Below the pieces are notes generated by a model. It saw only the letters and a list, made by a program, of their open reading frames with translations. It was not told the DNA's origin and did no database searches. A DNA stretch of 64,000 nucleotides from a virus, in IMG/VR virus record IMGVR_UViG_3300035670_000121, positions 21,616 through 85,615 of that record; one strand, written 5' to 3'. This document shows, one piece after another, positions 12,316 to 55,744 of the stretch. The position numbers and the translations under genes are program-made. The first letter of the stretch is position 1; the number at the start of each line of letters is the position of its first letter.

Positions 12316-12928
12316 AGATCAAAAATATATTTGCTTTGATTTTGAAACTTGTCATCTCAATTTAGTCAATACAGACAATAAGCCTTGGCAATTAAGTTAT
12401 CTTATCGCAAAAGGCAATCAGATTATTAAAGAAGTAGATAATTATATTTATTGGCCTGATCTGAAATTGTCAGAAGGAGCTAAAGAGGTTACTCATTTTG
12501 ACGAAAGGCGGTATCATTCATTAGCTGCCGATCCCAAAGACATACTTTCTTCTTTTGAAGATTATATTTATGATAGCGACTATCTAATAGTAGGACAAAA
12601 TCTTCTTGGTTTTGACGTATACATACATAATATATACCGAAAACTTCTAGGTAAGTCGCCTGATTTTTCTTATGTTAAACGCATTCTCGATACAAATTGC
12701 ATCGCTAAAGCGATTAAAAAGAATATTAAACCACAAAAGGATTTAGACTTTACTTGTTGGCAGTATAGATTAAATGATTTCCGAGAAAAAGGATTAAAAA
12801 CAAGCATAAAAGCTCAATTAAAAGATTATAAGATTGATTTTGATGAGAGCATGTTGCATAATTCTATGTACGACGTTCAGATGAACTTCAAAATCTTTCA
12901 GAAGCAGCTTTGGCAAATCGAAATATGA
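12299..12928 (+). CDS. DEDDh 3'-5' exonuclease, proofreading type
   Basis: 209 residues. DnaQ-like exonuclease expected to proofread for the phage polymerase. ExoI motif CFDFETCHLN (Asp, Glu), ExoII VGQNLLGFDVYI (Asp) and ExoIII HNSMYDVQ (His and Asp five residues later) are in order and spacing. Its last codons overlap the polymerase start as ATGA (12925-12928), consistent with stoichiometric coupling of polymerase and exonuclease. Confidence 0.88.
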   Translation: MLRFNKDQKYICFDFETCHLNLVNTDNKPWQLSYLIAKGNQIIKEVDNYIYWPDLKLSEGAKEVTHFDERRYHSLAADPKDILSSFEDYIYDSDYLIVGQNLLGFDVYIHNIYRKLLGKSPDFSYVKRILDTNCIAKAIKKNIKPQKDLDFTCWQYRLNDFREKGLKTSIKAQLKDYKIDFDESMLHNSMYDVQMNFKIFQKQLWQIEI

Positions 12929-14685
12929 ATTTTTTACAAGATATTCAGAGTTATGACGACGCAATGTTGCCGGGTGTAAGATTGCCTCAAATATCAATCG
13001 ATAGTAAATATTATGATTTACTGAAGATTCCAACGTCTTCAGATAATTTTACTTTTCTTAAAACTTTATGCTATCGCAGTTTAGAGAATAAGAATCTAAA
13101 TAAGAAAGAGTATGTAGATAGATTAGAGATGGAGTTGCAGATTTTTCATGAACTTGATTTCGTTGATTATGTGTTACTGAATTGGGACATTCTTAATTTC
13201 TGTCACGAAAATAATATTCCAACTGGTCCCGGTCGAGGTAGCGCTGCGGGTTCATTGGTTTTGTTTTTGGTTGATGTCACTAAAGTAGATCCAATTCGAT
13301 ATGGACTTTTCTTTGAGCGATTTGTGAGTAAGTCTCGCGCAAAGAAGATTATCAAAAACGATATTACATATCTTGATGGCTCGCTATTGCCAGACGTAGA
13401 TAACGACATTAGTTATGATCGCAGAAGTGAGGTTATTAAATATATTGAAAACAAGCATTTTGGTAAAACTTCAAAAATCTTAACTCTTAATACTTTATCT
13501 AGTAAACTTTGTATCAAAGAGTGCGGTAAAATTGTTGGCGGTTATTCTGAAACGGAAGTAAACGAAATTAGCGATCTAATTCCAAAACAATTCGGTCGCG
13601 TTTTTGGCTTAGAAGAAGCCGCTAAGGAAAACGATAAGTTTAAAAAGTGGTGCGACGATAATCCTAAGCTATTTAAAATAGCTAAGAAAATTGAAGGCTT
13701 AAACAAGAATACTGGTGTTCATCCTTCTGGTATTGCTATTTCTTATTACAAGATAGATGAAGTTTGTCCTGTTCAGAAAACTTCAGATGGAGATTTAGTT
13801 AGCGGATATGATATGAATTATGTCGCTGAACTAATGGTAAAATTTGATGTTCTTGGATTAAGAACTTTAACTGTTGTTAATGAAGTATGCAAAATGTTGA
13901 ACATGGATATGACAAGTATCGATCCTGAAGATCCATTTATATATGAAAATTTGCAAAATCTAAAGACTCCTCAAGGTTTATTCCAAATTGAAGCTGATAC
14001 TAACTTTAAAGTCTGTAAAAAAGTTAGACCAAAGTCGCTTGAACAATTAAGCGCTGTTATTGCTATTGCTAGGCCGGGTGCATTAGATTTTGCTGATCAA
14101 TACGCCACTTATTCGGCGTCTACAATAGCGCAAGTAGTTCATGATTTTTTTCAAGAAGAATTATTATACACTGGTGGTATTCCTCTGTATCAAGAACAGT
14201 TAATGAAAATGGCTGTACGCTTAGGATTTACTCTGGATGAAGCTGAACAATTAAGACGTATTGTCGGCAAGAAGAAGGTAGACCAAATGCCTCAATGGCA
14301 AGGAAAAATTCGTCAAAAAGTCATTGAACAGAATCTTGATCCTGCTATTGGTGATGTATTATGGAAAGTTGCAGAAGATTCTGCCAATTATAGTTTTAAT
14401 AAATGTTTATTACCTGAAACCCTGGTTGAAACGAAATCTGGATTTAAATGTTTAAATGATGTCAAAAAAGGAGAAATGGTTTTAGCGTATGATGTTGATA
14501 ATGATAAAGATCATTATGTAGAAGTTGTAAACATTCATCAAAATGAAGTTGAAGTTTACGAAGTAGAAATGGAAGACGGAACAAAAATATCATGTTCTAT
14601 GGATCATAAGTTTCTATGTCAAGACAGAAAAATGCACACTCTTAGAGAAATAATTTCCCATAATTTAGAAATTATGTGTAAATAA
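12925..14685 (+). CDS. dnaE: DNA polymerase III alpha, N half, fused to split N-intein
   Basis: Residues 1-493 (to base 14403) are the palm, thumb and fingers of a bacterial C-family polymerase without PHP: GPGRGSAAGSLV, catalytic Asp pair in LLPDVDNDIS, third Asp in VKFDVLGLRTLT. The protein stops being polymerase after YSFNK; Cys at 14404 starts 93 residues of N-intein: block A (CLLPETLVET) and block B (GTKISCSMDHKFLC). It then ends, so the gene is broken at the conserved FNK/SHS site. The C half lies beyond an endonuclease gene (from 15619). Protein trans-splicing is needed to make a full polymerase. Start ATG 12925 is coupled to the exonuclease stop. Confidence 0.93.
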   Translation: MNFLQDIQSYDDAMLPGVRLPQISIDSKYYDLLKIPTSSDNFTFLKTLCYRSLENKNLNKKEYVDRLEMELQIFHELDFVDYVLLNWDILNFCHENNIPTGPGRGSAAGSLVLFLVDVTKVDPIRYGLFFERFVSKSRAKKIIKNDITYLDGSLLPDVDNDISYDRRSEVIKYIENKHFGKTSKILTLNTLSSKLCIKECGKIVGGYSETEVNEISDLIPKQFGRVFGLEEAAKENDKFKKWCDDNPKLFKIAKKIEGLNKNTGVHPSGIAISYYKIDEVCPVQKTSDGDLVSGYDMNYVAELMVKFDVLGLRTLTVVNEVCKMLNMDMTSIDPEDPFIYENLQNLKTPQGLFQIEADTNFKVCKKVRPKSLEQLSAVIAIARPGALDFADQYATYSASTIAQVVHDFFQEELLYTGGIPLYQEQLMKMAVRLGFTLDEAEQLRRIVGKKKVDQMPQWQGKIRQKVIEQNLDPAIGDVLWKVAEDSANYSFNKCLLPETLVETKSGFKCLNDVKKGEMVLAYDVDNDKDHYVEVVNIHQNEVEVYEVEMEDGTKISCSMDHKFLCQDRKMHTLREIISHNLEIMCK

Positions 14686-14689
14686 TAGT

Positions 14690-15637
14690 ATGAACAATGT
14701 TAAATATAATGATTCAATAAAATTCATATCTATTAATTATTTCGATATATGTCAGCTTGATGGAAAATCAAAAAAAGAAATAATTAATTTATTTCCTAAA
14801 AGGCAAGATGGTGCTTATTATTTGAATAAATTTATTAATTATATCGAAAAATATTATAAAATTTCAATTCAAGAATATGTATTTAAATATTTAAATATTA
14901 AATGGCCTACATGCCCAGTTTCAAAAGAAAAAGTTGGTTTTCGAGTTAACGGAAAAGGAATTTTCTTTTCAAAATTTAAAAAGGGTAAAGTTTGTAAAAA
15001 ATATTCTACAGCTTTTCAAAAAGCTTGCGAAAAATTTTCTCAAAATAGAAAAGGTAAAAACAATCCAATGTTCGGAAAAAAATCTTGGAATTCGGGTTTA
15101 TCAAAAGACTCTGACGCGAGAATAAAAAAAATATCCGACGAACGAAAAGGAATTGTTTTTAAGCAAACACATAAAAATAAACTCAAAGAAGCTAGAGCAA
15201 ATCATCCGTTAAAAGCTCGGCACGTCACTAAACATACTGATGAGTCTAAGAAAAAAATGAGAGAAGCCACTATTAATAGATGGCAAAAAGGTGATTTTAA
15301 TTTTAAAAAAACAAGTATAGAAAAAAAAGTTGAACAATGGTTGTTAGATAATAAGATCGATTTTCAATTTCAATATAATGTTGATTATTTTATAGCTGAT
15401 TTTGCTTGTTTGAATGAAAAAATCTTGATAGAATGCCAAGGTGATTTTTTTCATTGTAACCCTCATTTTGAAAAATATAAAAATCCAAAATATGAAGTTC
15501 AAAAGAGAAATGTTTTTCGAGATAAAATAAAAAAACAAAAATACAAGCAATTAGGTTGGAAACTTATAGAATTATGGGAATCAGATATTAATTCTGGCGA
15601 ATTTAAAAATATACTAAAATGCGAACTCAAAAAATAA
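14690..15637 (+). CDS. EDxHD/Vsr-like homing endonuclease inside fractured dnaE
   Basis: 315 residues, starting 4 bases after the N-intein stop and overlapping the C-intein gene by 19 bases. The middle has NUMOD3-like DNA-binding motifs (NNPMFGKKSWNSGLSKDS and a repeat near HTDESKKKMREA). The C-terminal ~100 residues form a Vsr-like nuclease: Glu in TSIEKKVEQWL, Asp in YFIADFACL, ECQGDFFHC, then a C-terminal GWKLIELWESDI. This matches the EDxHD family known from 'fractured genes' with split inteins. It presumably cuts intact dnaE alleles and spreads the break together with itself. Confidence 0.9.
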   Translation: MNNVKYNDSIKFISINYFDICQLDGKSKKEIINLFPKRQDGAYYLNKFINYIEKYYKISIQEYVFKYLNIKWPTCPVSKEKVGFRVNGKGIFFSKFKKGKVCKKYSTAFQKACEKFSQNRKGKNNPMFGKKSWNSGLSKDSDARIKKISDERKGIVFKQTHKNKLKEARANHPLKARHVTKHTDESKKKMREATINRWQKGDFNFKKTSIEKKVEQWLLDNKIDFQFQYNVDYFIADFACLNEKILIECQGDFFHCNPHFEKYKNPKYEVQKRNVFRDKIKKQKYKQLGWKLIELWESDINSGEFKNILKCELKK

Positions 15638-16806
15638 TTTCAATTAAATCTTTAGGAAAAAGAAAAACTTTAGATTTAGAAGTAAATCATAAAGATCATA
15701 ATTTTTATGCTGAAGGTCTTGTTTCGTCAAATTCACATTCCATAAGCTATGCTATTCTTGCGGCTTGGACGACTTACTTGAAGTTTAAACATCCAAAAGA
15801 ATTTTTTCTAGCTTTATTGAAGCTTTCTAAGTTTGAGCCTGATTCTCATAAAGAAATTAATAAAATATCAAAAGAGTTAATGTTTTTTGATATTGAATTG
15901 CTTCCTCCTGACTTAGCTAAATCTGCAATCGATTTTAATATTGAAGATAAGAATATTCGATTTGGATTAAATTCTATCAAAGGTGTTTCAGAAAAGACGC
16001 TTGAATCACTTCAGCAATTTAGAGAAACCAATACTCCTAATAAGTTCGATATCTTTATTACAGCTAAACAAGCTGGAATCAATATTGGCTTATTGTCTTC
16101 TCTGATTCAAGCTGGAACATTAAGCTCTTATACTCATCGTAGATCAAGATTGGTTCTCGAAGCTCAAACGTTTAATCTACTTACAGACAAAGAAAAGAAG
16201 TACGCTTATTCTATTGGAGATAAATATAATTACGATATTCTCACAATCGTTAGCGAATGTGCTTTTAAGAATAAGAATATAAATCAAGATGGTAAGCCAT
16301 TCATGTCAGATAAAAGAAAGGCGACCTTCAAGAAAAAGTACGATGAGTATAAGAAAATATATGATCAAAACAAGAATCATGAAAAATTTGCTAATTGGGT
16401 ATTCGAAAACAAACTGCTTGGTTATACTCCATCTATTAAACTGAAAACTGTTTTTGAACAACCTGAAGCTACTTTTACTGATACTTTAGAATTTCAATCT
16501 ACTTTAAAGAATGATTTAGTTAAAATTGTTGGAGTTGTAGATGATGTTTATAAAGGAAAGAGTAAAAAGAGTAATAATCAATTCTTTAGAATTGCTTTGA
16601 AAGATGAAGTTGGAACCGTGATGGGTTTATTTATGGATGGTGGAAAAAAAGCTCGTTTATCAGAGTATTTAGAAGATGGCTTAAAGATTCCAGAAAAAGA
16701 AAACATTGTAGTTTTTACTGGACGAAAAGGTGATGATGTGTTATGGATAGAGAACATTGCAATACTTGATGATAAAATCTATATGAAGCTATCTGACGTA
16801 GAATGA
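15619..16806 (+). CDS. dnaE: Split C-intein fused to DNA polymerase III alpha, C half
   Basis: Residues 1-38 are a C-intein: a KRKTLDLEVN strand, HNFYAEGLVSSN block F/G ending in Asn38 (bases 15730-15732), with Ser in place of the usual penultimate His as in cyanobacterial DnaE inteins. Ser39 (15733) is the +1 extein nucleophile and begins SHSISYAILAAWTTYLK, the direct continuation of the N half. The remaining 357 residues hold the rest of the fingers, the HhH region and an OB fold (LVKIVGVVDDVY, GTVMGLFMDGG). Spliced polymerase would have about 850 residues without the PHP part. Overlaps the Clp gene by 4 bases. Confidence 0.93.
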   Translation: MRTQKIISIKSLGKRKTLDLEVNHKDHNFYAEGLVSSNSHSISYAILAAWTTYLKFKHPKEFFLALLKLSKFEPDSHKEINKISKELMFFDIELLPPDLAKSAIDFNIEDKNIRFGLNSIKGVSEKTLESLQQFRETNTPNKFDIFITAKQAGINIGLLSSLIQAGTLSSYTHRRSRLVLEAQTFNLLTDKEKKYAYSIGDKYNYDILTIVSECAFKNKNINQDGKPFMSDKRKATFKKKYDEYKKIYDQNKNHEKFANWVFENKLLGYTPSIKLKTVFEQPEATFTDTLEFQSTLKNDLVKIVGVVDDVYKGKSKKSNNQFFRIALKDEVGTVMGLFMDGGKKARLSEYLEDGLKIPEKENIVVFTGRKGDDVLWIENIAILDDKIYMKLSDVE

Positions 16807-19420: not shown

Positions 19421-20569
19421 ATGAGCGAATATAATCCTCTTTACAATGTCAACGCAAACAATGATGGCAAAAACGATACATTCGATTTTGCTATGCCTGA
19501 CATTCCAGATCCAGTAGAACCAGCACAAGTCGAATTAAAAGATAAAGACGCTGTAGGTTTTAAGTTTGGTTTTATTGGAGCTGGTCAAGGAGGAAGTAAA
19601 CTAGCAGAAACCTTTTCTCAAATTGGTTATGCTAGAGTTGGCGTAATTAATACTGCTGATCAAGATTTAGCAACTATCAATGTTAAAAACAAGTTGAAGT
19701 TTGGCGAGCAACAAGGCGCTGGCAAAAATAGAGAGTTCGCCAAACAAGCATTTATTAATCACAAAGAAGATGTAGTTGATTTTATTAAACAGTCTGTTGG
19801 AACTGATATAGATCGTGTGTTTGCTGTTGTTGGAGCTGGCGGTGGCACTGGAGCTGGTGTTTGTTCAGAATTAGTTAAAACTCTTAAAGAATATCAAACA
19901 ACAGTCAAAGCTACATCTCCATACGTTGGATTGATATTGGCGTTACCTAAGCTATCTGAAGGTAAGAAGGTAAGTGAAAACGCTTATGCTACACTAAAAG
20001 AAGCTTGTAAATTAGTTGAAGATAAAATCGTTTCTCCATTAATTATTCTAGATAATGAAAAGATTAATAACTTATATCCTAAATTATCTGTAAATAAGTT
20101 CTGGCAAGTAGCAAATGCTAATATTTGTGCGTTATTTCATTTATTTAATAATATTATAACTAAAAATAGTCAATATAGTACATTTGATACAAATGATTTT
20201 CGTACTGTTTTAGATTCTGGTATTATGGTGTTTGGCGCAGCTAATATCACTGAATTTAAAAATGAAGCTGAAATTTCTAAAGCTGTTAGAGAAAATCTAA
20301 AGCGTAACGTTCTCTGTGGTGAATTAGATCTAGCTACTGGCAGTGTTGCTGCCGCTGTAGCAATCGGTGATGAAAAAACTCTAGATAGTATTCCTCAAGA
20401 ATATCTAGATAACGCTTTCAATCAATTAAATAGAACTCTAAAAACTAATAGCACAGTTCATCAAGGCATTTATAAAGGCGTTAAAGATGGTTTATCTATA
20501 TTTACTGCTATTGGTGGTATATCAACTCCAAATGGTAAATTAGAAGCGCTTCTAAAAGCTAGTCAATAA
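19421..20569 (+). CDS. FtsZ/tubulin-like GTPase
   Basis: 382 residues. Tubulin-superfamily GTPase expected to form dynamic filaments. GFIGAGQGGSKLAE opens the Rossmann-like GTP domain; the signature GAGGGTGAG (residues ~138-146) is intact; NTADQDL resembles the T3 region; and FDTNDFRTVLDSGIMVFG matches the T7 synergy-loop/H8 area that completes the GTP site of the next subunit. The first ~40 residues are a Pro/Asp/Asn-rich disordered tail. In jumbo phages PhuZ tubulin centres the phage nucleus or moves capsids; this one looks nearer to FtsZ in motifs, so the role could also be interference with host division. Confidence 0.88.
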   Translation: MSEYNPLYNVNANNDGKNDTFDFAMPDIPDPVEPAQVELKDKDAVGFKFGFIGAGQGGSKLAETFSQIGYARVGVINTADQDLATINVKNKLKFGEQQGAGKNREFAKQAFINHKEDVVDFIKQSVGTDIDRVFAVVGAGGGTGAGVCSELVKTLKEYQTTVKATSPYVGLILALPKLSEGKKVSENAYATLKEACKLVEDKIVSPLIILDNEKINNLYPKLSVNKFWQVANANICALFHLFNNIITKNSQYSTFDTNDFRTVLDSGIMVFGAANITEFKNEAEISKAVRENLKRNVLCGELDLATGSVAAAVAIGDEKTLDSIPQEYLDNAFNQLNRTLKTNSTVHQGIYKGVKDGLSIFTAIGGISTPNGKLEALLKASQ

Positions 20570-51689: not shown

Positions 51690-52613
51690 ATGTTTGATTC
51701 ACTAGTGGGTCAAGTGGAAGTAAAGCGTAAGCTGGCGTTCTATGCGTCAGCTTACGCAACTTCTCGCACCGTACCGTTTCTCAACTTTATCGGTGCTCGC
51801 GGTTTGGGCAAGACGAATTTTGTTCGTGCTTTCTCGAAATCGCTGCTGGATAGCAATGGACAGAAAAAGCCATTGCTTGAGATTAACAGTTCAAGCATCA
51901 AATCTTCTGCACATTTCTTTGAGCAGATTTTTATTAATCATGTTCAAGATAAAGAAGTTGTGCTGTTTTTTGATGAGTGCCACTGTCTTCCTGAGAATTT
52001 AGTATTTGCTTTTCTTACAATTCTAAATACAGAAGAAGGAAATGTTAAGCATTATAATCATGGCGACAATCTTTTTGTTTTTGATTTTACAAAAATAAAT
52101 ATATTGTTTGCAACTACTGAATCAGATAAGATCTTTCTACCACTGAGAGATAGATTAACTACAATAGAATTTGCTGATTATTCTAATAATGAATTAGAGC
52201 ATATTTTTAAGTTGAATCTTCCTCAGATTGAAATTGATAATGATGCGCTTGCAATGCTGGCTGATACTTCAAGGGGAAATGCACGGTCATGCGTTCTCCG
52301 GGCCAAGGAAGTAGCATTGTATTGCAAAAACTACAACGTCAAGAAGTTTACTATTGACGACGCCAAGAAGTTGGTTTATATTCTCGGCATACTACCTCAC
52401 GGTTTGAACCGGATTGAGTGGCAGATACTAAATATTTTGCGTCAAAATGGACATTGTTCTTTGTCTGCTTTGGCTGCAAAAACAGGTTTGTCACGCACTG
52501 CGATTCAAAAAGACCATGAGTTGTTTTTGATTAAGAAAAATTTAATCCACATTGATGGACTTAGAATGCTAACTACAAGCGGTGCAAAAGTTCTTCTAGA
52601 AAATAAAGTATAA
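51690..52613 (+). CDS. RuvB-like AAA+ ATPase
   Basis: 307 residues. Starts MFDSLVGQVEVKRKL as RuvB, with Walker A GARGLGKT, Walker B VVLFFDECH, sensor 1 FATTES, arginine-finger region PLRDRL, sensor 2 near SRGNARSCVLRA and a winged helix (GLNRIEWQILNILRQNGHCS). RuvB drives Holliday junction branch migration; no RuvA or RuvC is nearby, so it may pair with host RuvA or serve as a different AAA+ loader. The 5' part shares the G+C-richer codon use of the gene upstream, the 3' part does not. Confidence 0.87.
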   Translation: MFDSLVGQVEVKRKLAFYASAYATSRTVPFLNFIGARGLGKTNFVRAFSKSLLDSNGQKKPLLEINSSSIKSSAHFFEQIFINHVQDKEVVLFFDECHCLPENLVFAFLTILNTEEGNVKHYNHGDNLFVFDFTKINILFATTESDKIFLPLRDRLTTIEFADYSNNELEHIFKLNLPQIEIDNDALAMLADTSRGNARSCVLRAKEVALYCKNYNVKKFTIDDAKKLVYILGILPHGLNRIEWQILNILRQNGHCSLSALAAKTGLSRTAIQKDHELFLIKKNLIHIDGLRMLTTSGAKVLLENKV

Positions 52614-53306: not shown

Positions 53307-53578
53307 GGGCCTTTAGCTTAATGGTTAAAGCAGCGAACTCATTTAATAAAAGTGCCTTATAGAAGAAATTCTATATTGAATCGCGTCAAAGTCGGTGAAA
53401 CCTAAACTACAAATAGTAGGCAATACCGAGCCAAGCTGTAGAAATACAGAAGGTGTAGAGACTTGACGGCGCGTTCCTAAAGTAGAAATACTATGGAAGT
53501 GGTAAAGTCCAGAGAGAATAGAAATATTCACAAATCCGAATTCGTTGAGTGAAGGTTCAAATCCTTCAAGGCCCCCCA
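53307..53578 (+). tRNA. tRNA-Ile2-type (CAU) with group I intron
   Basis: Exons 53307-53342 and 53539-53578. Spliced product: acceptor GGGCCTT/AAGGCCC, D stem GCTT/AAGC, anticodon stem GCGAA/TTCGT, loop CTCATAA, T stem GAAGG/CCTTC, encoded CCA. The sequence around GCGAACTCATAA resembles tRNA-Ile2, whose C34 is modified to lysidine to read AUA, more than tRNA-Met. The intron follows the T of CAT. Confidence 0.9.
53343..53538 (+). ncRNA. Group I intron in tRNA(CAU), Azoarcus-like
   Basis: 196 nt, no ORF. 5' site after T in CAT and last base G. P1: exon CAT plus TT pair with AAGTG, with the T-G wobble at the splice site; the internal guide GTG for CAT is the same as in the Azoarcus tRNA-Ile intron. 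Conserved core R-like GTGTAGAGACTTGACGG (53456 region) and S-like GGTAAAGTCCAGAG form P7. Expected to self-splice. Confidence 0.87.
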
Positions 53579-54440: not shown

Positions 54441-54469
54441 TTGACAAAGGGCGTATCCAATAGTAGGAT
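54441..54469 (+). promoter_or_regulatory. Sigma70-like promoter of tRNA-Leu
   Basis: TTGACA (54441-54446), 17-base spacer, TAGGAT (54464-54469). Confidence 0.75.
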
Positions 54470-54475
54470 ATGTAC

Positions 54476-54487
54476 GTTCTTTAAAAT
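54476..54487 (+). promoter_or_regulatory. boxA-like antitermination motif
   Basis: GTTCTTTAAAAT, 12 bases before tRNA-Leu. Confidence 0.5.
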
Positions 54488-54499
54488 TGAAGGTTCTGT

Positions 54500-54781
54500 C
54501 GGGCAGTGGCGAAATGGCAGACGCATTATTACGGTGCATTTATAGCGAAAGCTATATCTAAACGGTGTAAATTCGGCGAACGGTTTAACCTCCCAACGCC
54601 GAGCGAAATCTCGAAAGAGAGACGTGTAGAGACTATAATCACCCATCTAAAGTAGTAATACTAAGATGAAGGCATAGTCCAGACTACAAACAGAGAAATC
54701 TGGTAACGAAAGTTATAGTAGTACGCAGACTTAAAATCTGAAGGTAGAAATACCGTAGGGATTCGAGTTCCCTCTGCCCGA
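54500..54781 (+). tRNA. tRNA-Leu (UAA) with group I intron in anticodon stem
   Basis: Exons 54500-54526 and 54726-54781. Spliced: acceptor CGGGCAG/CTGCCCG, D stem GCG/CGC, anticodon stem TCAGA/TCTGA, loop CTTAAAA (TAA), long variable arm GGTA-GAAA-TACC, T stem AGGGA/TCCCT. CCA is not encoded (ACAG follows). Only joining T at position 27 to CAGA restores the five-pair anticodon stem, which places the intron between nucleotides 27 and 28. Confidence 0.88.
54527..54725 (+). ncRNA. Group I intron in tRNA-Leu(UAA)
   Basis: 199 nt, no ORF. Exon GCAT pairs with intron GTGC in P1 with T-G at the 5' splice site; last base is G. P2-type hairpin TATAGC-GAAA-GCTATA, and core GTGTAGAGACTATAA with GGCATAGTCCAGAC pair as P7. 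The insertion site in the stem differs from the anticodon-loop site of the cyanobacterial tRNA-Leu intron. Confidence 0.85.
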
Positions 54782-54801
54782 CAGAGCCTTTAATTTATAA
54801 A

Positions 54802-54890
54802 TTTTGCAGCAATGAGGGCAGTCGTCACTAAGACGTAGCTTAAGGTAGCCAGTGAAAAGCCTCTCGGAAAGGATCTGGTAGAAATCAGGA
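54802..54890 (+). repeat. Structured RNA domain, copy A
   Basis: TTTTGCAGCAATGA then GGGCAGT, hairpin CGTC-ACTAA-GACG and TAGCTTAAGG. The same order recurs 194 bases downstream (copy B), with compensating changes in the hairpin. Confidence 0.55.
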
Positions 54891-54995
54891 CATTTAATTA
54901 GCGTAAAGTAGATGATGCTTTTCGAATCATCCGAGCTAAAGTATGTCGATATCTGATTGGGAACACATTAAGCACTGAACAACCTGATCTGCAAT

Positions 54996-55084
54996 TTTTG
55001 CAGCAATGACGGGAGTCGGTAATTGACCGTAGTTTGGGGCGCTGGAAATTCCGGGCACCAGACAACTCAGCGACGTGATCTGCA
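54996..55084 (+). repeat. Structured RNA domain, copy B
   Basis: TTTTGCAGCAATGA then GGGAGT, hairpin CGGT-AATTG-ACCG and TAGTTTGGGG, then CTGG/CCAG. The hairpin bases differ from copy A but remain paired, evidence for RNA function. Confidence 0.55.
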
Positions 55085-55351
55085 AAAAAACATACAGTGC
55101 GCCCAAGCGATCTTGTTTTGAGTCGCTTTACACTGAGCAAAAAATGGGCATTTAGTTCTTTTATAATAATTTTTAGGTTCAACCGCTAATGAAAGGTGTC
55201 ACCTATTGGTTTAGGGGATGGACACTGCGGATCGGAAAATAACCAATACACCGCATGAACCTAAAATTTCTTGCTAGAAGGAGAAAGAGGCTCATGCCTC
55301 TGTCCTGTAAGTTTTTAAATAAACGAGAAAGGCACTTTTAGCAAGATTAAT

Positions 55352-55434: not shown

Positions 55435-55509
55435 TCTAGAGTATTTCAATGGTAGAAAAGCGAACTGTTAATTCGTTAGTTGGAAGTTCGAGTCTTCCCT
55501 CTAGAGCCA
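55435..55509 (+). tRNA. tRNA-Asn (GUU)
   Basis: Acceptor TCTAGAG/CTCTAGA, D stem TTTC/GAAA, anticodon stem GCGAA/TTCGT, loop CTGTTAA (GTT), T stem GGAAG/CTTCC with TTCGAGT loop, discriminator G, encoded CCA. Confidence 0.93.
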
Positions 55510-55513
55510 ATTT

Positions 55514-55659
55514 TTATTCGATGTCAGCAGGCTCACTATGCTGAAAAAAGATATATTAGTTCGAAATAATATAGTCGTGGAGAGTGAGTGGGTTAATTTA
55601 TATGCAAATATAAATAATAATAAGCTTCTAGAGCTTTCCCTTAAACCAACATCGAATAA
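55514..55659 (+). ncRNA. Structured intergenic RNA between tRNA-Asn and tRNA-Tyr
   Basis: No ORF. An 11-bp closing helix TTATTCGATGT/ACATCGAATAA encloses three further helices: CTCACT/AGTGAG, ATATTA/TAATAT and AAGCT/AGCTT. The arrangement is that of a multibranched RNA of about 146 nt within the tRNA transcript. No known family recognised. Confidence 0.55.
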
Positions 55660-55662
55660 TTC

Positions 55663-55744
55663 GGGAGTATCGTATAGCAGCAATTACAGGAGACTGTAAA
55701 TCTCCCGGCGCAAGCCTACATAGGTGCAAGTCCTATTGCTCCCA
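55663..55744 (+). tRNA. tRNA-Tyr (GUA)
   Basis: Acceptor GGGAGTA/TGCTCCC, D stem GTA/TAC, anticodon stem GGAGA/TCTCC, loop CTGTAAA (GTA), long variable arm with GGC-GCAA-GCC, T stem ATAGG/CCTAT. CCA is not encoded (A then T-run). Confidence 0.9.

What the first reader, a model, noticed from the sequence alone, without database searches (positions are those of the whole stretch)
54795..55345. 550-base structured noncoding region among tRNAs with an internal RNA duplication
No ORF fits. Two copies of a TTTTGCAGCAATGA domain 194 bases apart keep a hairpin whose bases changed together (CGTC/GACG versus CGGT/ACCG). Downstream, an 11-bp helix closes a likely pseudoknotted domain, followed by another closed domain. 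Size, phage location and tRNA neighbours match GOLLD RNA, a giant RNA of unknown role; a different, undescribed RNA is equally possible.
Basis: partly seen in the sequence, partly recalled or inferred. Interest (0 to 1): 0.75.

Follow-up and report, generated by a model that had tools for sequence, protein, structure and literature searches.

The report
Modular structured RNAs in phage tRNA array
Between the tRNA genes of a group of environmental phages sits a string of small folded RNAs matching no catalogued family, conserved in related phages and apparently swapped in and out as ready-made pieces, much like the still unexplained small RNAs of phage T4.

Summary
In detail: 54795-55345 is noncoding, structured and lies between tRNA-Leu (split by a group I intron) and tRNA-Arg. 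The reading as one giant GOLLD-like RNA does not. GOLLD and ROOL models give nothing, and relatives show a string of separate modules: A-long (54802-54994), A-short (54995-55090), B, a pseudoknot (55091-55150), G (55171-55268) and C (55269-55346). A-short plus B is one ~155-nt unit, found once in each of 16 other virus records (a 17th has A-long plus B), always downstream of tRNA-Leu. Its fold (three-way junction plus pseudoknot) has 8 pairs with compensatory changes, 0/500 shuffles, five of them seen only in the window's own copy. Other modules come and go. G with its linker is 95-96% identical in two records that share almost nothing else with the window in the DNA compared. Module F, after tRNA-Asn, covaries more strongly. 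Most likely these are stable RNAs cut from the tRNA transcript and acting in trans, like T4 RNA C and D, to which no homology was detected. No transcript was seen; function is inferred.

The parts
54441..54469 (+). promoter-like site TTGACA-17-TAGGAT upstream of the Leu...Tyr run
   Evidence: 11 TTGACA-N17-TANNNT sites in the window, 1.4 expected; consensus match only
54499..54782 (+). tRNA-Leu (UAA anticodon) split by a group I intron (intron model match 54518-54703)
   Evidence: RF00028 44.5 bits, E 1e-9, below the gathering score of 50; exon halves read by eye; ARAGORN does not call it
54802..54994 (+). module A-long: P1 stem and three-way junction with an extra ~100-nt internal domain
   Evidence: 79% identical to L006; 8 of 52 predicted pairs changed on both sides between the two
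54995..55090 (+). module A-short: P1/P2 stem, three-way junction, arms P3 and P4-P5
   Evidence: covariation; MFE z -4.05; model R1, with B, 164.8 bits
55091..55150 (+). module B: pseudoknot (CAGTG/CACTG 55095-55099 with 55131-55135; hairpin 55106-55110 with 55123-55127; GCCCA/TGGGC 55101-55105 with 55145-55149)
   Evidence: hairpin pair seen as U-A, C-G and G-C; the pseudoknot helix varies on one side only
55151..55170 (+). A/T-rich linker AGTTCTTTTATAAT..., recurrent before modules and tRNAs
   Evidence: same linker travels with G in L040/L041; GTTCTTT sites
55171..55268 (+). module G, closed by an 11-bp helix
   Evidence: 95-96% identical in L040/L041; two closing pairs differ on both sides from L040
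55269..55346 (+). module C, closed by an 11-bp helix, inner GAGGC/GCCTC hairpin
   Evidence: z -4.33; a 35-nt match to L024, which in turn matches the C form of L007/L013/L015/L019
55352..55427 (+). tRNA-Arg (UCU)
55435..55509 (+). tRNA-Asn (GUU)
55516..55657 (+). module F (outside the finding): closed RNA with palindromic apical loop UUCGAA at 55560-55565
   Evidence: 9 pairs changed on both sides, 0/500 shuffles on the covariation score; 10 further records
55663..55744 (+). tRNA-Tyr (GUA)

Best explanation
The stretch is a string of independently folding noncoding RNA modules carried in a phage tRNA operon. It is transcribed with the tRNAs, probably from the promoter-like site before tRNA-Leu. 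The tRNA-processing enzymes that cut the 3' end of tRNA-Leu and the 5' end of tRNA-Arg would then free the material between them. The stable core is A+B, about 155 nt: a stem with a three-way junction (A) followed by a compact pseudoknot (B) that may protect the 3' end. Shown: sequence, conservation, covariation, position, modularity. Inferred: transcription, processing, stability. Inferred and weaker: the RNAs act in trans during infection through their shape, for instance as bait or inhibitor of a host protein that handles RNA (a tRNA-cutting defence nuclease, an RNase or a ribosome factor); their exchange as cassettes alongside tRNA genes fits that best. I put the first part (structured RNA genes processed from the tRNA transcript) at about 0.75 and the anti-host, trans-acting role at about 0.3.
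For: A+B recurs once in each of 17 of 23 virus records searched whole (the other 6 had been fetched for module F), plus the window. Upstream of it, directly or after modules E/D, lies tRNA-Leu(UAA): called by ARAGORN in 14 of the 17 contigs, read by eye as a Leu-like or intron-split tRNA in the other three, L007, L013 and L024, and in the window. A starts 1-2 nt after the tRNA end in 7 loci. Covariation over 12 distinct sequences: 98.4% of cells paired, 8 pairs changed on both sides, 0/500 shuffles, slid controls 0-1 such pairs. RNAalifold independently recovers the A-long junction and MFE recovers A-short. A+B stays 74% identical to L019, where the phage DNA polymerase is 53% identical. T4 precedent: RNA D begins 1 nt after tRNA-Arg in the annotation; RNAC and RNAD are late RNAs of unknown role, seen by Northern blot (passages of PMC9697503 and PMC3014915).
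Against: No transcript data. P1 and BP1 never vary and the pseudoknot varies on one side only, so those helices rest on complementarity. Five of the eight both-sided changes on A1 (columns 16-87, 19-80, 25-35, 28-34, 48-66) are seen only in the window's own copy, the last of them where that copy is aligned one column off; only columns 40-74, 41-73 and 121-138 change on both sides in other sequences. I looked at the sequences, including the window copy, before naming the structure. RNAalifold on the same alignment pairs the junction somewhat differently. No partner or target is known; no sequence feature points to a defence system. In L004, L006, L009, L012 and L014 the 58-59 nt before tRNA-Arg seem to hold a promoter of their own (by eye), so processing of a read-through transcript is not the only route.
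Confidence: 0.6

Rival explanations
1. One giant RNA of the GOLLD/ROOL kind, with A, A', B, G and C as its domains.
For: Size of the stretch, phage, tRNA neighbours; GOLLD is described as near tRNA islands with a variable 5' region (passages of PMC12286853). The whole Leu-Arg interval could leave the transcript as one molecule.
Against: No match to RF02032 or RF03087 at E<=10; the interval is only about 155-170 nt in several relatives and modules occur apart.
Confidence: 0.07
2. Cis-acting spacers: the modules only insulate or help fold and process neighbouring tRNAs, or keep RNA polymerase going, and have no role after processing.
For: Always among tRNAs; recurrent linker and promoter-like motifs.
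Against: Many tRNAs in the same arrays are separated by a few nt with no module; modules are gained and lost while tRNAs stay; loop sequences inside A and F are conserved beyond what a spacer needs.
Confidence: 0.2
3. Mobile or decayed genetic elements (intron remnants, decayed tRNAs) without function of their own.
For: G with its linker moves between records; the array holds homing elements and introns; module E has an anticodon-arm-like hairpin.
Against: Compensatory changes keep helices, which decay would not; A+B is conserved at one place in 17 other records.
Confidence: 0.13

Closest known systems
T4 RNA C and RNA D (species 1 and 2 RNAs)
   Same: Small (139 and 119 nt) noncoding RNAs at the end of a phage tRNA operon; RNA D is annotated 1 nt after tRNA-Arg; function unknown (PMC3014915 passage); no Rfam match at gathering scores.
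   Different: No match to model R1 above 4.1 bits; predicted folds differ; no modular exchange known to me.
GOLLD RNA (RF02032)
   Same: Phage RNA of unknown function near tRNAs, with a variable 5' part (passages of PMC12286853).
   Different: No covariance-model match; here the conserved unit is ~155 nt, not 400-800 nt; modules occur independently.
ROOL RNA (RF03087)
   Same: Large phage RNA near tRNA islands, with pseudoknots (PMC12286853 passage).
   Different: No match (the control rang nowhere, so that test alone is weak).
Group I introns in phage tRNA genes (RF00028)
   Same: Present in the same array, in tRNA-Leu just upstream.
   Different: Modules A, B, G, C and F do not match the intron model and do not interrupt a tRNA.

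Membership tests
GOLLD (RF02032) | match to the Rfam covariance model | tested here: not met
   no match at E<=10
GOLLD (RF02032) | phage location near tRNAs | tested here: met
GOLLD (RF02032) | homo-oligomeric RNA cage | not testable with these tools
   needs cryo-EM or native mass measurement
ROOL (RF03087) | match to the Rfam covariance model | tested here: not met
   no positive control rang
T4 RNA C/RNA D | sequence and structure homology | tested here: not met
   best 4.1 bits, E 1.8, filters off
T4 RNA C/RNA D | small RNA within the phage tRNA operon, starting next to a tRNA 3' end | tested here: met
T4 RNA C/RNA D | stable transcript in infected cells | not testable with these tools
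   no RNA data
Group I intron | match to RF00028 within the finding | tested here: not met
   only 54518-54703, upstream
any Rfam 15 family | match with E up to 10 in 54795-55345 | tested here: not met
   one search lists none; T4 RNA C/D also lack one (gathering scores), so this alone is no proof of novelty

The most novel reading that the evidence does not exclude
Phages of this group carry a pool of exchangeable RNA cassettes, each a closed structured RNA (A/B, C, D, E, F, G, H, I, J) with its own linker, shuffled among tRNA arrays as tRNA genes are. Some self-associate through palindromic kissing loops (F: UUGCAA in nine aligned sequences, UUCGAA in the window), so that the array makes a kit of RNA parts that assemble into larger RNA-only or RNA-protein particles during infection.
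Probability: 0.25. Interest if true: 0.82.

Novelty: new variant of a known kind. Interest (0 to 1): 0.6.

Why it matters
T4's two tRNA-operon RNAs have no assigned role; the two papers whose passages I read call it unknown (PMC3014915, PMC9697503). Here is a second, apparently unrelated phage lineage with such RNAs, with enough relatives to begin fixing structures by covariation and with modules that come and go. That gives defined ~100-200-nt RNAs to express, probe and use as bait. If the cassettes exchange like tRNA genes, phage 'tRNA arrays' are better seen as stable-RNA islands.

Tried and rejected
GOLLD and ROOL by covariance model: none. Pattern hits without the RNA, judged chance because they give no credible R1 match and, where checked, lack tRNAs: L003, L008, L010, L011, L022, L034, L035, L036 (L035 10.2 bits, E 0.62), L037, L038, L039; (L034 was not checked for tRNAs). 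Named phages: no A/B match by blastn. The clamp-loader-like protein 51690-52613 found no relatives in viral contigs. Protein coding: rejected. Recent local duplication of A: rejected. Pairing between the A-long loop and the window's F loop: no support. Literature: the searches listed no paper whose title or abstract start describes this RNA; preprints and most subscription papers are not held, so it may be in print elsewhere. Papers: passages read of PMC12286853, PMC3014915, PMC9697503, PMC2864571 and PMC9964418; the rest seen as search listings only.

Full report
Context. The window lies in an 85.6-kb virus record. Phage genes include ribonucleotide reductase, a DNA polymerase, a clamp-loader-like protein and a homing endonuclease by PHROGs. 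The finding sits in a tRNA array: tRNA-Ile 54357, an intron-split tRNA-Leu(UAA) about 54499-54782, then the finding, tRNA-Arg 55352, tRNA-Asn 55435, tRNA-Tyr 55663. TTGACA-N17-TANNNT sites occur 11 times in the window against 1.4 expected, all on the + strand, four of them in this array.

The observation. All the described features are there (see the observation check). The two TTTTGCAGCAATGA copies open two closed domains, A-long and A-short, whose 3' strands are also repeated (D3).

Relatives. A pattern for the 5' end of A, scanned over IMG/VR, returned 15 contigs; further scans with B, the A 3' end, looser A patterns, module F and module G added more. Eleven pattern-hit loci (L003, L008, L010, L011, L022, L034-L039) were dropped as chance. 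A covariance model of A-short+B (R1) found one copy in each of 17 of 23 virus records searched whole; the six without it had been fetched for module F. In one of the 17, L006's record, the copy is A-long plus B. The window has two matches: 164.8 bits for A-short+B and 29.0 bits for A-long. No named phage record matched A/B by blastn, and the one GTDB scan gave three hits, none a convincing R1 match.

Structure of A+B. The alignment A1 holds 12 distinct sequences: the window's A-short+B and 11 others. Left out were L009, L012, L016 and L018 (identical or nearly so to included ones), the L020/L023 copy, which is split over two loci, and L006 as the long form. A structure of 42 pairs is formed in 98.4% of cells. 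Eight pairs change on both sides in at least one sequence; 0 of 500 shuffles reach the covariation score, and slid controls give 0-1 such pairs. The fold: P1 GCAG/CTGC; P2; P2b CAGU/ACUG opening a three-way junction; arm P3; arm P4-P5; then B. P4 is G-C or A-U and U-A or C-G in different clades; the B hairpin pair is U-A, C-G or G-C. The both-sided changes in P2, P2b, P3 and P5 come only from the window's own copy, and P1, BP1 and most of the pseudoknot do not vary; these are weaker. The structure was named after inspection of the sequences. RNAalifold, without guidance, gave the same three-way junction for A-long (52 pairs, 8 changed on both sides between the two available sequences) and on A1 a related but not identical arrangement at the junction. 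The minimum-energy fold of A-short shows the junction as named.

Modules. The architecture table shows, from tRNA-Leu: optional E, optional D, A+B always together, then optional I, H, J or G, optional F, optional C, then tRNA-Arg. A+B is followed by tRNA-Arg with no other recognised module between in eight loci (L004, L005, L006, L009, L012, L014, L016, L020). In five loci A begins 1 nt after tRNA-Leu and in two loci 2 nt after; in L017 and L018 D begins 1 nt after. F is between Asn and Tyr in the window, before Arg in L017, L018 and L021, and in other places in tRNA-rich records without A+B (L025, L026, L028-L030). So the 550-nt stretch is a string of modules, not one conserved RNA.

Mobility. 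The window and L040/L041 (contigs of one sample, by contig name) share 116 nt at 95-96% identity, window 55151-55266, which is the linker plus G; within the DNA held for those loci the only other match to the window at E<=1e-4 is 42 nt in L041. The interior of G is essentially unchanged while two pairs of its closing helix differ on both sides between window and L040. Searching whole records, G is found in 2 of 25 and F in 10 of 25.

F. Ten of the eleven F copies, window included, were aligned (the truncated L027 copy left out); eight rows are distinct. 35 pairs, 99.6% of cells paired, nine pairs changed on both sides, seven of them in one hairpin; 0/500 shuffles reach the covariation score, 1/500 the number of both-sided pairs. 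Its loop is palindromic in all ten: UUGCAA in nine, UUCGAA in the window. PMC12286853 describes palindromic loops that switch between palindromes as intermolecular kissing loops in OLE and GOLLD (passage). Here it is one change event, so it is suggestive only. I also asked whether A-long (whose loop holds UUCGA) and the window's F loop might pair with each other: in L006's record, the other one with A-long, no F was found, so there is no support.

Evolution. A+B in the window is 74% identical to L019 and 80-83% to L002, L004, L005, L007, L013, L014 and L015, while the phage DNA polymerase is 53% (L019's record), 80% (L014's) and 87% (L006's) identical in protein. The two A copies of the window are 64% identical in their shared core, less than either is to its nearest relatives.

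Interpretation. T4 makes RNAC and RNAD from its tRNA region, late in infection, roles unknown (passages of PMC3014915 and PMC9697503). The modules here resemble them in place, size and closeness to a tRNA 3' end, but share no detectable homology. I conclude that A+B and its neighbours are RNA genes processed out of a tRNA transcript; that they act in trans is the likeliest but unproven reading. They are not GOLLD or ROOL members by model.

Limits. The contigs are fragments, so absence of a module in a record is not firm. Host and expression are unknown.

Noticed in passing
window 53308-53577: A second tRNA split by a group I intron-like insert (CAT anticodon region, read by eye); ARAGORN does not call it.
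   Followed up: no
window 54484-54509 and 54771-54796: Leader and trailer of the split tRNA-Leu extend its acceptor stem to a 26-nt, 88% complementary inverted repeat.
   Followed up: no
L025 3456-3578; L026 3714-3836 (-); L030 700-822; L028 2573-2695 (-): tRNA-His-like genes of 123 nt with about 45 nt inserted in the anticodon loop, too short for a group I intron, conserved in four records.
   Followed up: partly
L028 2850-3010 (-): A tRNA-like domain lacking the acceptor stem (RF00005 35.7 bits, positions 7-64) embedded in a larger closed RNA; similar stretches in L025 and L026.
   Followed up: partly
L015 3387-3503 (-): Module E holds a hairpin resembling a tRNA-Ser(GGA) anticodon arm (by eye); E might be a remodelled tRNA.
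   Followed up: no
window 53194, 53290, 53588, 54346, 54476, 55155: GTTCTTT recurs on the + strand of the array, after -10-like sites and as a linker before modules: a possible processing or insertion signal.
   Followed up: partly
window 19421-20569: Tubulin/FtsZ-like protein by its GGGTGAG motif (recognised by eye, motif recalled); no PHROG match.
   Followed up: no
window 12910-16806: DNA polymerase gene interrupted by a stretch with an endonuclease-like ORF (14690-15637), intein-like junctions by eye.
   Followed up: no
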